A stretch of 64,000 bases of DNA from Henricia sp. BOLD:AAB3569 (taxonomy: Eukaryota; Echinodermata; Asteroidea; Spinulosida; Echinasteridae), in assembly GCA_037783545.1 (NCBI GenBank), contig JBBELK010000305.1, forward strand, positions 682,001-746,000, given 5' to 3'. The notes beneath the pieces were generated by a model. It did no database searches. It was not told the origin of the DNA and was given only the letters and a program-made list of their open reading frames with translations. A program made the translations under genes and the position numbers. This document shows, one piece after another, positions 8,097-14,000 of the stretch (position 1 is its first letter; every line of letters begins with the position of its first letter).

Positions 8097-11000
8097 GTAA
8101 GTGATGCGATGGGCTGTGTTTTTCCGACACCAAATGAAACCTAAATGGAGAAAATGGAAAGGGGTAGGGCTATGATACTTCTAGCCCCGCGAGCAGTGCT
8201 TCGGGTGGGGAAACCCTCAGCCCTGTCTGCTAATATACACCAAATCTGTGGCAAACTCACGCAAATGAAATTTGTCGCATGGCTCCGATATTTGCTCAAT
8301 AGGCAGGTGCACTCACCCTAGCTAAGATAATCTCAGCTCTTTTTTATCATTTTTCATTGGGATGTGGTCTTTTCACCAGTAGAGCTGAGAGAAGTTAAGA
8401 ACATGAACCCGCCATCGCAAAACAAAGTGTCATTTTCTCACCGTGACACACTAATTCCCCCTAAAACTCACCCAAACCTTGCCAGGCATAACCACTATGC
8501 AGGTCCTTGAGGGAAATAACCAGCCACGATGATTATTTTGCCAACAATTCCAACAAAACAAACCGGTATTCTCACAGCCAGTGCTGTTGTCTTGTGTTTT
8601 AAATGATAATGTGTCTTCTCGTCGCGTGACCCATAGTCTGTGTACAAAGGAATTTTTATGCGCGTCGGTTACCAGTGCACATGCGGCCCACCAGTCAAAC
8701 CTATTTCGTAATCACGTCCGCACTGCGTAAGACCAACCGACAGAAGCGCACACCCGACGACTGTTTGCTGCACTACTGCTACACTATGAGGCTTGTGTCA
8801 CTGGTATCACAGCGGAACGGCAGCCGAAGTTGATGCGAAACGCCGCACCAGGTGTTGAGTCCGAGTTAAAAGTAACTCGATGCCCGCCCAGTGACACAAG
8901 CCTCATAGTGTAGCAGTAGTGCAGCAAACAGTCGTCGGGTGTGCGCTTCTGTCGGTTGGTCTTACGCAGTGCGGACGTGATTACGAAATAGGTTTGACTG
9001 GTGGGCCGCATGTGCACTGGTAACCGACGCGCATAAAAATTCCTTTGTACACAGACTATGGGTCACGCGACGAGAAGACACATTATCATTTAAAACACAA
9101 GACAACGGCACTGGCTGTGAGAATACCGGTTTGTTTTGTTGGAATTGTTGGCAAAATAATCATCGTGGCTGGTTATTTCCCTCAAGGACCTGCGTAGTGG
9201 TTATGCCTGGCAAGGTTTGGGTGAGTTTTAGGGGGAATTAGTGTGTCACGGTGAGAAAATGACATTTGTTTTGCGATGGCGGGTTCATGTTCTTAACTTC
9301 TCTCAGCTCTACTGGTAAAAAAAACCACATCCCAATGAAAAATGATAAAAAAAGAGCTGAGATTATCTTAGCTACACTCACCCCAGTTTATAAATATTCC
9401 GAAGAGTACGCATCGATCCGCTTTACAGTTACTTCGCCCCATTTCCACTTCGCCCCATGTCAGTTCGCCCCATGTCAGTTCGCCCCATACGGATACCACA
9501 TCGCCCCATTACCACTTCGCCCCGTTACCACTTCGCCCCATTGCCACTTCACCCCATCGCCACTTCGCCCCATTGCCACTTCGCCCCACCTATGCTATTT
9601 AGCCGGCAGTCAGTTAAAAAAAAAAAATAAGGAAAAGAGTAGGCCTAATTTACTCTGCGCCACTGGTTTTATCATTATGAATTGATGTGTAAAAAAAACA
9701 CGTCTGTAATTGATCACGTTCAACAGTTGAAATGACGTCACTTTCTACAAATTGCCATGTGCATCGTGATTTTGAGCGTATTTGTTTGTGTCGCGCATCG
9801 GTTGCGCCGTATTTCGAACAAAATTTGAGCCACACGCGCGCGTGTTTAGAACATGTTCCAGCGTGTGCGTGCGCATACTTTATGGCGTTTATTACGCAGT
9901 AGCATTTTTTCCTACGAAGATGGCGTCTGTGAACGAGATCTTCGTAGGAAAAATGCTACTGCGTATTGAACGCTATAGAGTACGCGCACGCACACGCTGG
10001 AACATGTTCCAAACACGCGCGCGTGTTGCTCGAAAATTGTATGCAACTTGTGTTTTAGAAAGAGTAGCAGATATTTGTAAAATACACAAATCGGCAAATT
10101 TTTATGCTGAACAGGTTTATGAAATTAGCCAGCTGGCCCATGGCCCAAAGGTCAATAGGTCCAACAAGATTTAATTTTCATCCAATTCGTTTTAATCCGA
10201 ATTTGAGTGCAGTTAATTAAAGCAAGAATTAAAGTTGACATGTTTTTGTTTTGTTTTTTCTTTGTTTAGTTTGCAAGCAATCGAAAAAAATAAATCTGAA
10301 AAACAAGTTTAATCCGCTTTTTTTTGCCCGTTTTACAAACACCCTGTATAGTGTTGTTAAAAAGTCGTTCAGGACAAATTTACACCGGGGTGTAATAAAC
10401 CTTATCGACGTTCTCAATGCATTATGGGATTGGATGACAAAATTGCCCGGCCAATTGTGCATAATCTCTGCGCCATGAGCATCTTTTTTGATGGATACCG
10501 GCGCATTATAAATTTTCATTATTATTATTATTAAACCTATCAGGCGGACACCAACTAGGCAACTTTTTTACTCATTTTCACGAAAACCAAAAAGAGTTCA
10601 AGAATCAACCTCCCACCACTTTATCTTTGACACATATCAAACATTCTGACAAACATGTCCCGAAACAGAAATGTTGCAAATGCGAGAAATCATCGGGGAT
10701 TCCCTTCGTATCGGTAGAGTCCGAGTACCACGCTCGCAGCTCGATATGCGCTATGCAACACACGCCGTACTCGGCACGGCGTTGGACGGATTGAGTGTGC
10801 TGCACTCCCCTGCGTGTCCGTGTACACGGCAGACTCCCCCACCAATATAAATTTTTGAAAATCGTTTGAAAAAATGCATATCGTCAGAAATTATGCTTAA
10901 TTTTTCAGTTCCTATTTAAAAGGTTTGAATTGCACAATGTTGTGATATTTTAGAGGATGTTTTTCAGGATGCGCTATTTCAGAAACGGCAGGAATGTGTT

Positions 11001-14000
11001 GTGAAACTCAACAGTTTTACCACGGGAGTCCGCACTCACGGACTTGCAGTGCAGCACACTCAATCCGTCAAGCGCGCCGTGCCGATACGGCGTGTGTTGC
11101 ATAGCGCATACCGAGCTGCGAGCGTGGTACTCGGACTCTACCAATACGAAGGGAATCCCCAAAGATTTCTCGCATTTGCAACATTTCTGTTTCGGGACAT
11201 GTTTGTCAGAATGTTTGCTATGTGTCAAAGATAAAGTGGTGGGAGGTTTATTCTTGAACTCTTTTTGGTTTTCGTGAAAATTAGTAAAAAAGTTGCCGAG
11301 TTGGTGTCCGCCTCATAGGTTTATGCACACTTGGCGGGGCAATTTTGTCATCCAATCCCATAATGCACTGAGAACGTCGATAATGTTTATTATCGTGTCA
11401 TAGACTAAAGCGGGCCTCCCACTGTGCGATTTTTGCCACGAATTAGCTACGATTGGGTATACGATTGGATACGATTGTGTGTAGAGTCTATAGGCAGTCT
11501 CCGATAATCGTACCAAGTCGTAAGAAATTCGTGGCAAAATTCGCACAGTGGGAGGCCCGCTTCAAGGAAAACAGTTTGCTAAAAGCTGTGAGAACTTGCC
11601 CCGACTGAATCATTCAAAAAGTGGACGCTAACAAATGAGACCTCACTTTTAAATAAGACCTCAACGAAAAAATCCACGAACGGTTAGTTATTAGACTCTT
11701 TTCACTTTTTTTGTACTGACTGCCGGCTAAATAGCATAGGTGGGGCGAAGTGGCAGTGGGGCGAAGTGGCAGTGGGGCGAAGTGGCAGTGGGGCGAAGTG
11801 GCAGTGGGGCGAAGTGGCAGTGGGGCGAAGTGGCAATGGGGCGAACTGACATGGGGCGAACTGGAAATGGGGCGAAGCGTCCGACAACCATCGATCCGAT
11901 GTCTAGTTTCGGTGAAATCGTGGGGAAAGTTTAGCTAAGATAATCTCAGCTCTTGCTTTATCATTTTTCATTGGGATGTGGTCTTTTCACCAGTAGAGCT
12001 GAGAAGCATTAAGAACATGAACACGCCATCACAAAAACAGGACAAAACAAATGTGTCATTTTCTCACCGTGACACACTGATTCCCTCCTGGGACTCACCC
12101 AAATCTTGTCAGGCATAACCACTACGCAGGTCCTTGAGTGAAATAACCAGCCACGATGAATATTTAGCCAACAATTCCAACGAAACAAACCGGTATTCTC
12201 ACAGCCAGTGTTGTTGTCTTGTGTTCAAAATGATACTGTGTCTCGTCGTCGCGTGACCCATAGTCTGTGTACAAAGGAATATTTATGCGCGTCGGTTACC
12301 AGTGCACATGCGGCCCACCAGTCAAACCTATTTTTAGATCACGTCCGCACTCCGTACGACCAATCGACAGAAGCGCACACCCGACGACTGTGACACAAGC
12401 CTCATAGTGTAGCACTGTAGTGCAGCAAACAGTCGTCGGGTGTGCACTTCTGTCGGTTGGTCGTACGGAGTGCGGACATGATCTAAAAATAGGTTTGACT
12501 GGTGGGCCGCATGTGCACTGGTAACCGACGCGCATAAATATTCCTTTGTACACAGACTATGGGTCACGCGACGACGAGACACAGTATCATTTTGAACACA
12601 AGACAACAACACTGGCTGTGAGAATACCGGTTTGTTTCGTTGGAATTGTTGGCTAAATATTCATCGTGGCTGGTTATTTCACTCAAGGACCCGCGTAGTG
12701 GTTATGCCTGACAAGATTTGGGTGAGTCCCAGGGGGGAATTAGTGTGTCACGGTGAGAAAATGACACATTTGTTTTGTCCTGTTTTTGTGATGGGGTGTT
12801 CATGTTCTTAATGCTTCTCAGCTCTACTGGTGAAAAGACCACATCCCAATGAAAAATGATAAAGCAAGAGCTGAGATTATCTTAGCTAGGGAAAGTTTGA
12901 GACTTCCGTTCGATGAAATTCCGACTTTCACCATGCGCGAGAGCGGAGAGGTCAACACTAGACTGGTTCCACATCCTCAATTTACTTCCCTTCGTCGTAA
13001 GATGAAGGGAAGTAAATATGAGGACAGCGAACCAGTCTAGATTGTGTTGACCTCTCCGCTCTCGCGCATGGTGAAAGTCGGAATTTCATCGCACAGAAAG
13101 TCTCAAACTTTCCCCACGATTTCACCGAAACTAGACATCGGATCGATGCGTACTCTTCGGAATATTTATAAACTGGGGTGAGTGCACCTATTGAGCAAAT
13201 ATCGGAGCCATGGGACAAATTTCATTTGCGTGAGTTTGCCACAGATTTGGTGTATATTAGAAGACAGGGCTGAGGGTTTCCCCACCCGAAGCACTGCTTG
13301 CGGGGCTAGGATACTTCCAAATCCAAGTAGTAAATACTTAGAAGTATAGGCTGGTTTTTATATGATATCAGTGAATGATTTCCCCTCTATCGCATCACAA
13401 AATGTAGGGTCAGAAATGGAAATTTTCTTCTTGCTGGCAAGCATCAGTTTTGTACTCTTATCAAAAGTCCAATTAAACATGAATTGAACAGTTCAAGAAT
13501 GAGTTCAATCGGATGACCGGTTCAAAAGTTATGTTCGATCAAAAATTGGAAATCCAGAGAGTTCTGTGTTCAAAATCTAAATGGACACAATGGTAAATTC
13601 TAGGTGACAAGGATAACTAAAACAAGGAGTAAACTAGTAAACAAAAAAGGTAAACAAATTTAAAGCTTCAGATTTTCATAAGTGAAACACATATGGACTT
13701 TATTTTTGATGTACACGTAGCTGACAGGCAGTCGGCCTAAGTCATAGCATATTTTAATTGAAAATCATTATTTTGTTGCCATGGTAACATAAGTAAACAA
13801 ACTTGTTTATATAAATGCAATTTATGCTAATAACATCATAACATGCATCAATTTTATGTTTTTGCGGCATGGAAACAGAAGCACCAAGAATAACATAACT
13901 GCAGTAATAACTTAATTAATTAGCATGTTGTTTGTTTACTATATTTCAAGTTAAAAGACATGTAGTAAACAAAAGAGTAAACAAATGTAATTGCCCATAA

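What the first reader, a model, noticed from the sequence alone, without database searches (positions are those of the whole stretch)
8173..13317. Nested foldback stack: three insertions in one arm of a palindrome
A palindrome of about 615 bp (8182-13308) has been entered three times in its left arm and never in its right. Insertions 8319-9374, 9421-11888 and 11932-12888 carry target duplications CACTCACCC, CATCGATCCG and GGGAAAGTT. The right arm stays continuous, so it serves as an internal uninterrupted reference and proves each junction. The one-sided pattern may be chance, or one arm may have been a preferred target.
Basis: seen in the sequence. Interest (0 to 1): 0.75.

Follow-up and report, generated by a model that had tools for sequence, protein, structure and literature searches.

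The report
Jumping DNA nested at favoured sites
In the first intron of a p38 kinase gene of a probable sea star, one palindromic mobile element has been entered three times, and one of those entry points is a landing site that other mobile elements have also used in other copies of the same palindrome.

Summary
A 618-bp palindromic element (OUT, 8182-13308) is split by A1, B and A2, each with the target-site duplications stated. A1 and A2 are one family.

The assembly also holds the other allele of this p38-intron locus (contig C333). It keeps both OUT ends and the A1 junction but lacks B. Its A element is an A1/A2 hybrid, so A1 and A2 stood together before a recombination deletion. Its A spacer is inverted.

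The arm was not chosen; the base pairs probably were. A1's site (OUT 129-137, CACTCACCC) carries inserts of three families at seven other loci, four with both duplications. A weak motif built from 17 A sites elsewhere ranks it first of 611 positions at the default setting. The mirror site in the right arm scores the same and is empty; three of three in one arm has probability 1/4. A2's site is not well predicted.

B resembles Mutator/Foldback elements, and a MULE element with similar ends exists here. No transposase was found for OUT or A. New members of a known kind, with a recurrent self-nesting site as the interesting part.

The parts
7963..8096 (+). coding part of exon 1 of a p38 MAP kinase gene, followed by GTAAGT at 8097; the stack lies in its first intron
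   Evidence: translation [44 protein letters not shown]; PDB best match MAPK14, E 1e-9; a kinase-domain fragment further on at 24402-24493, just below Pfam's cut-off (29.2 against 31.7 bits)
8173..8181 (.). left target-site duplication of OUT (TGATACTTC)
   Evidence: 8 of 9 in window, 9 of 9 in the other haplotype
8182..13308 (.). OUT: palindromic foldback element TAGCCCC...GGGGCTA, 618 bp without its inserts
8310..8318 (.). site 1 (OUT 129-137, CACTCACCC), duplicated at 9375-9383; used again in other OUT copies
8319..9374 (.). A1: foldback element TAGCTAAGA...TCTTAGCTA, arms of about 485 bp and a spacer of about 83 bp that is inverted in the other haplotype
9421..11888 (.). B: Mutator/Foldback-like element with inverted arrays of 16-bp repeats and unequal terminal motifs; 10-bp duplication CATCGATCCG at 9411-9420 and 11889-11898
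10393..11392 (.). C: further foldback element inside B; no duplication recognised
   Evidence: 39 other places, of 40 scored, have their main match (about 660-880 bp) in this part; one of them, C303, also matches B nearby. Of two other B copies read, one has no C match and in the other 85 bp stand in place of 10379-11563, with a C fragment lying outside that B copy
11408..11562 (.). 155-bp inverted repeat beside C, possibly a further small insertion
11932..12888 (.). A2: second A-family foldback, duplication GGGAAAGTT at 11923-11931 and 12889-12897 (site 3)
12898..13308 (.). centre and uninterrupted right arm of OUT, including the empty mirror of site 1
13309..13317 (.). right target-site duplication of OUT (GGATACTTC)

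Best explanation
OUT, A and a third family (D) are palindromic or inverted-repeat DNA transposons with TAG...CTA ends that make 9-bp duplications; the copies read carry no recognised transposase. Related transposase(s), probably Mutator-like, insert them at a weak symmetric motif around the 9-bp site. Copies of OUT contain good matches to that motif, so the families nest in one another at a few fixed positions. At this locus OUT entered p38 intron 1, then A1 entered OUT at the strongest A site, and A2 and B entered the same arm. The arm was random. The nest is unstable: on the other haplotype recombination between A1 and A2 removed about 3.5 kb including the B position, a second deletion of about 170 bp removed the palindrome centre, and the A spacer is flipped. 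Shown: anatomy, duplications, repeated use of the site, ranking by the motif, hybrid allele, opposite spacer orientation. Inferred: one shared or closely related transposase, its Mutator identity, the order of insertions, and the recombination mechanism.
For: Anatomy and duplications. Site 1 used again: all 13 places with a TAG junction among the 100 listed of 1518 were read. 6 were C-to-T point mutations and 7 were real junctions, at C99, C205, C384, C433, C514 and C10 (two places, 99.8% identical, counted as one). The right-hand junction search gave 3 exact of 566: C99, this window and C308. Duplications on both sides: window, C99, C384, C433 (9 of 9) and C10 (8 of 9). Insert families: A at the window, C384, C433, C10, C308; OUT at C205, C514; D at C99. 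Independence: among window, C433 and C10, hosts are 86-94% alike while insert ends are 98-100% alike. Motif: 18 of 18 A copies fetched have 9 of 9 duplications, 17 loci after removing one allelic pair. Their matrix ranks site 1 first of 611, tied with its mirror, and at 9 or better in 18 of 20 settings; random-site matrices reach rank 2 or better in 0.7% of 3000. The OUT matrix ranks OUT 234-242 first; TAG junctions there were read at C720, C175/C720 and C46. Each family's matrix favours the other's sites. Haplotype: window 13047-30368 aligns to C333 at 98.7% over 17.4 kb and 7593-8804 at 98.0%; its A element is mostly A1-type up to position 919, then A2-type at 31 of 32 informative columns; spacer score 84.4 inverted against 38.0 direct.
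Against: Site 3 (A2's target) ranks only 54 of 611 for the A matrix at the default setting and far lower for OUT, and its TAG junction is found only here (1 exact of 547 matches with up to 2 mismatches, 100 listed); B's site is not predicted either (rank 200). The OUT matrix ranks site 1 only 25 to 64 (5 to 93 over the settings), although OUT itself is found there at C205 and C514. By strict right-junction counts site 1 (3 of 566) is not clearly above site 3 (1 of 547). C514, C205 and C308 have a junction on one side only, and C205 could be a tandem duplication. Site-4 junctions were read on one side only. The host-older-than-insert pattern is not seen for C384 (hosts 84-89%, inserts 86-95%), and four other A copies are themselves 92-98% like the site-1 inserts at their ends. 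The motif is weak: A sites have a median leave-one-out percentile of 0.89. Motif background and null came from this one window. No transposase was found for OUT or A.
Confidence: 0.78

Rival explanations
1. Site 1 insertions of A descend from one ancestral OUT copy that already held an A element, and the composite was then copied around; there is no hotspot.
For: A elements at site 1 in window, C433, C10 and C308 are close to one another (97-100% over the ends compared); C384 and C10 hosts share a variant just after the site. A precedent in print: 107 rice MULEs carry the same MITE at one site, read by the authors as one insertion later copied (PMC3903597, passages).
Against: Hosts are 6-14% diverged while insert ends are 0-2% diverged among window, C433 and C10, so the hosts split first, barring gene conversion. 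A different family (D at C99) and OUT itself (C514) use the same site.
Confidence: 0.12
2. One arm of this palindrome was a preferred target because of its chromatin or orientation.
For: Three of three insertions are in the left arm.
Against: Chance gives this one time in four; the mirror of site 1 scores the same and is intact; arms are nearly identical in sequence.
Confidence: 0.04
3. The stack is an assembly artefact of collapsed or mis-joined palindromes.
For: Palindromes are hard to assemble; contig C10 looks like an inverted duplicate of itself.
Against: A1, B and A2 each have matching duplications; contig C333 independently holds both OUT ends, the A1 junction and the A2 right end with the same flanks. 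B, C and the left junction of A2 rest on one contig only, and no reads were available.
Confidence: 0.04

Closest known systems
Tm1 Mutator/Foldback elements of root-knot nematodes (PMC3169594, passages read)
   Same: Composite inverted repeats with short tandem motifs (about 14 bp there, 16 bp in B), unequal short terminal motifs at the two ends, 8-10 bp duplications, some members with a putative transposase; the paper also shows one element nested in another.
   Different: Tm1 authors saw no target consensus; OUT and A show a weak symmetric one. OUT and A have no tandem arrays in their arms.
Tetris foldback of Drosophila virilis (PMC4079207, passages read)
   Same: Foldback anatomy, 8-10 bp duplications, no transposase found, assigned to Mutator on duplication length.
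   Different: Only three structurally complete copies; no fixed nesting site in the passages read.
MuTAnT MULEs of Medicago (PMC4486113, passages read)
   Same: Foldback-like MULE family with a strong target preference and 9-bp duplications outside microsatellites; 20 copies carry nested insertions or rearrangements.
   Different: Target is TA microsatellites, not a site inside sister elements.
Nested insertions in maize and rice MULEs (PMC3903597, passages read)
   Same: MULEs often carry nested insertions; one case of the same MITE at one site in 107 copies.
   Different: That case is read as one event copied with its host; MULEs themselves rarely entered other transposons there (7-9%).
Nested plant LTR retrotransposons (PMC6911290, abstract, outline and section 8 read)
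   Same: Nesting is non-random, includes insertion into the same family, and shows a weak preference for palindromes.
   Different: Class I elements; preference for regions of the host element, not for one fixed nucleotide position.
Sea urchin foldback element (Lieberman 1983; seen only as a citation inside PMC4079207)
   Same: Long inverted-repeat transposon of an echinoderm.

Membership tests
Foldback (FB) elements, for OUT and A | inverted repeats making up nearly the whole element | tested here: met
   A2 arms 460 nt at 98%, A1 98.6%, OUT arms align end to end
Foldback (FB) elements, for OUT and A | tandem repeats inside the inverted repeats | tested here: not met
   one search finds 15-16 bp arrays only at 9413-9604 and 11724-11898, that is in B
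Foldback (FB) elements, for B | tandem repeats inside the inverted repeats | tested here: met
   inverted arrays of 16-bp units at both ends
Mutator (MULE) superfamily, for OUT and A | 8-11 bp target duplications | tested here: met
   18 of 18 A copies 9 of 9; 17 of 19 OUT copies with 8 or 9 of 9 (16 distinct loci; L032 and truncated copies were not entered)
Mutator (MULE) superfamily, for OUT and A | a MULE transposase element with the same ends | tested here: inconclusive
   19 matches to PF10551 in the genome; 6 loci of about 3.3 kb examined, none with a match to OUT or A, two (L103, L106) with short matches to C
Tm1-like Mutator/Foldback, for B | unequal terminal motifs outside the inverted repeat | tested here: met
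   CTTTACAG at one end, GTTGTCGG at the other
Tm1-like Mutator/Foldback, for B | 8-10 bp target duplication | tested here: met
   CATCGATCCG, 10 of 10, in the window copy; other B copies not tested
Tm1-like Mutator/Foldback, for B | MULE transposase in a related coding element | tested here: inconclusive
   L107: MULE domain E 1.7e-10 between inverted 16-bp arrays, 10-bp duplication CCTGCATGGC, end AATGTCGGTCGTTTCG against GTTGTCGGACGCTTCG in B; but blastn finds no match of L107 to B: resemblance, not proof

The most novel reading that the evidence does not exclude
Several palindromic transposon families sharing ends and target motif carry landing sites for one another, so that they form a self-targeting community: new insertions are drawn into existing copies at fixed base pairs, nests grow recursively, and repeat recombination trims them. 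Such a sink could spare genes from new insertions.
Probability: 0.2. Interest if true: 0.62.

Novelty: new member of a known kind. Interest (0 to 1): 0.42.

Why it matters
It turns a curious nest into a measurable case: the same base pair in a repeated element is hit by several families, and a target motif learned elsewhere points to it. With about 1800 recognisable OUT arms in one genome, target choice, nesting rate and decay of palindromes can be measured without experiments. The two alleles at one locus show how such nests can shrink and how their spacers can flip.

Tried and rejected
One-arm preference was rejected as above. Composite mobility of OUT plus A1 was suspected first, when C333 showed the same junction; the flanks then showed that C333 is the same locus on another contig, taken as the other haplotype. 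Pattern hits alone were not trusted: 6 of the 13 listed TAG junctions turned out to be point mutations. Longer OUT copies were looked at for coding regions (L033, L061, L062): L061 and L062 are larger palindromes; only ORF lists were made and no family search was run on them. MULE loci L102-L107 (6 of 19 matches) were compared with OUT and A without a match. Conservation of site 1 among OUT arms is high (rank 12 of 292 windows), but the loci were chosen by matching that part of the arm, so this says nothing firm. In one search the rows with pseudocount 2 are wrong (integer array); one search repeats them correctly. L029 has a 115-bp insert in OUT without a recognised duplication. L025 has an A element at OUT 34-42 with duplication CCTCAGCCC, rank 21 for the A matrix. 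L061, flagged by script as an insert at OUT 403-410, shows no TAG junction or duplication there. Papers were sought; in those listings I saw no account of foldbacks nesting at one fixed site, but the library lacks most subscription journals.
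Full report
Setting. The window is G000:C305:682001-746000 of a 740.7-Mb assembly in 2104 contigs. In the mitochondrial COX1 the AAA codons fall where I recall Asn to be conserved, and an ND1-like frame lies on the opposite strand upstream of a run of apparent tRNA genes (not scanned) before COX1. From recalled knowledge of mitochondrial codes and gene order this points to an echinoderm, probably a sea star; no tool named the species. The nest lies in the first intron of a p38 MAP kinase gene: exon 1 ends at 8096 with GTAAGT following, and a kinase-domain fragment just below Pfam's cut-off follows at 24402-24493.

Observation. OUT spans 8182-13308 with TAGCCCC...GGGGCTA ends and 9-bp duplications (TGATACTTC and GGATACTTC, 8 of 9). 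A1 8319-9374, B 9421-11888 and A2 11932-12888 carry CACTCACCC, CATCGATCCG and GGGAAAGTT on both sides. OUT without its inserts is 618 bp. A1 and A2 belong to one family. B contains a copy of a further foldback family C at 10393-11392: of 40 places scored, 39 besides this one have their main match there (the list is cut, and C303 also matches B nearby), so the nest is three levels deep (OUT, B, C). Of two other B copies read, one has no C match, and in the other 85 bp stand where the window has 10379-11563, with a C fragment outside that copy. The inverted repeat at 9818-10040 recurs in other B copies and so belongs to B.

Copies. A 29-mer from the OUT arm has 1815 matches with up to 3 mismatches, against 0 for the reversed pattern. 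Of the 19 OUT copies entered, 17 have 8 or 9 of 9 matching duplications; L020 and L035 do not. L023 and L024 are one locus on two contigs; L032, whose left end is irregular, and truncated copies were not entered. A search with one A arm scored 40 of 1453 candidates and returned 70 matches; the 18 A copies whose ends I fetched from that list all have 9 of 9 duplications, and two of them are the same locus on two contigs. So 9 bp is the duplication length of both families.

The other haplotype. Contig C333 carries, in reverse orientation, the same flanks, the same outer duplication (9 of 9) and the same OUT/A1 junction. Window 13047-30368 aligns to it at 98.7% over 17.4 kb with 62 mismatches, and 7593-8804 at 98.0%; further out, beyond 36 kb, pieces align at 87-97%. 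I take it as the other allele. It is 1478 bp between the OUT ends instead of 5127. Its single A element is A1-like for most of its length, with a few exceptions, and A2-like at 31 of 32 informative columns in its last part, from position 931 on. The simplest account is a deletion by recombination between the direct-repeat right arms of A1 and A2, about 3.5 kb, plus a second deletion joining window 12878 to about 13047. So A1 and A2 stood together before the deletion; whether B was there cannot be told. The A spacer lies in opposite orientation on the two haplotypes (score 84.4 inverted, 38.0 direct), as expected from recombination between the arms of a palindrome. Chimeric copies are also described for the foldback-like Galileo (PMC3573991, passages).

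A recurrent landing site. In an OUT copy on C99 a different element of 1126 bp (D, TAGACTTGAGG...CATCAAGTCTA) sits at exactly the A1 position with the same duplication. A pattern for that junction has 1518 matches with up to 3 mismatches, of which 100 were listed. All 13 listed places that read TAG were inspected: 6 are point mutations and 7 are insertion junctions. The right-hand junction is exact at C99, C305 and C308, 3 of 566 matches. Together, besides this locus, seven loci have an insert at OUT 129-137: C99, C384, C433, C10, C308, C205 and C514. Both duplications are seen at C99, C384, C433 and C10 (8 of 9 in C10); only one junction at C308, C205 and C514. The inserts are A-type at C384, C433, C10 and C308, OUT-type at C205 and C514, D at C99. 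C205 reads as an OUT arm entered at this site by an OUT that was itself entered at its own copy of the site (CACTCGCCC), though its right side is not clean and a tandem duplication could look the same. Hosts are more diverged than inserts among the window, C433 and C10 copies, which favours separate events; C384 does not show this.

Target motif. A symmetric matrix built from 17 A sites, none of them chosen for lying in OUT, ranks OUT 129-137 first of 611 positions, tied with its mirror at 486-494 in the right arm. Over 20 combinations of width and pseudocount it ranks 1 to 27, and 9 or better in 18 of 20; matrices from random window sites reach rank 2 or better in 0.7% of 3000 trials. The OUT matrix (16 sites, 15 without this locus) ranks OUT 234-242 first at the default setting; over the 20 settings it ranks 1 to 29, and 8 or better in 16 of 20, the four narrowest giving 20-29. 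Random matrices give rank 2 or better there in 0.5% of 3000. Inserts at that second position were then found at C720, C175/C720 (same insert and host, counted once) and C46; 4 TAG junctions were seen in 100 listed of 164 matches, and all were read, each on one side only. Each family's matrix scores the other family's sites high (Kolmogorov-Smirnov p 5e-4 and 2e-7 against this window as background). Against the model: A2's own site ranks 54 for the A matrix and its TAG junction is seen only here (1 exact of 547 matches); B's site is not predicted, as expected for a different kind of element; and the OUT matrix places site 1 only at 25 to 64, although OUT is found there twice.

Why one arm. The right arm has the same best site and it is empty. 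Three independent hits fall in one arm by chance in 1 of 4 cases. No arm effect is needed.

What the elements are. B has arrays of 16-bp units in its inverted repeats, unequal terminal motifs and a 10-bp duplication. Locus L107 in the same genome is a 2433-bp element with a MULE transposase domain (E 1.7e-10), inverted arrays of 16-bp units, a 10-bp duplication and a similar end sequence, though blastn does not match it to B. This resembles the Tm1 Mutator/Foldback description (PMC3169594, passages). OUT, A and D have short TAG...CTA ends and 9-bp duplications, within the 8-11 bp of MULEs (PMC6446971, passages), but I found no coding partner, so their class stays inferred.

Verdict. The finding is real and the reading of it as nested foldbacks is right. 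Nested foldbacks and target preferences are both known. What I would tell a specialist is that one base-pair position inside a high-copy foldback is struck by several sister families, that a motif learned from other sites points to it, and that the two alleles of one locus show how the nest collapses and flips.

Noticed in passing
G000:C955:7592-41374: Three COX1 matches spaced 16,221 bases apart on one contig: the mitochondrial genome appears to be assembled as a tandem concatemer.
   Followed up: partly
L056 and L057 (C10:81120-82900 and C10:888600-890380): Two stretches 99.8% identical in opposite orientation and about equally far from the two ends of a 974,525-base contig; C10 may join two haplotypes head to head.
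   Followed up: no
window 55461-61685: Region with 56-60% GC at 56-62 kb, full of overlapping repetitive open frames on both strands ([12 protein letters not shown] repeats); no Pfam match for the one frame tested.
   Followed up: no
window 4639-6386: Minus-strand frames that look like a non-LTR retrotransposon; a reverse transcriptase domain in 4639-5103.
   Followed up: partly
window 34951-36146: Broken Tc1/mariner-like transposase frames; Tc3-type HTH domain E 8e-20 in the first.
   Followed up: partly
L107 (C216:1001314-1001613 and flanks): A MULE transposase element with inverted 16-bp repeat arrays and a 10-bp duplication, a possible coding relative of B.
   Followed up: partly
L103 (C93, MULE locus), 2944-3303: Short matches to the C foldback (93-100%) beside a MULE transposase match; C might be mobilised by a MULE.
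   Followed up: no
L062 (C3:2719790-2723120): An OUT copy whose 3.3-kb interior is itself a palindrome with arms about 99% identical and pieces of C.
   Followed up: no
L013:1430-2782: The reverse nesting: an OUT copy inserted inside an A element with duplication TGGTTATGC.
   Followed up: partly
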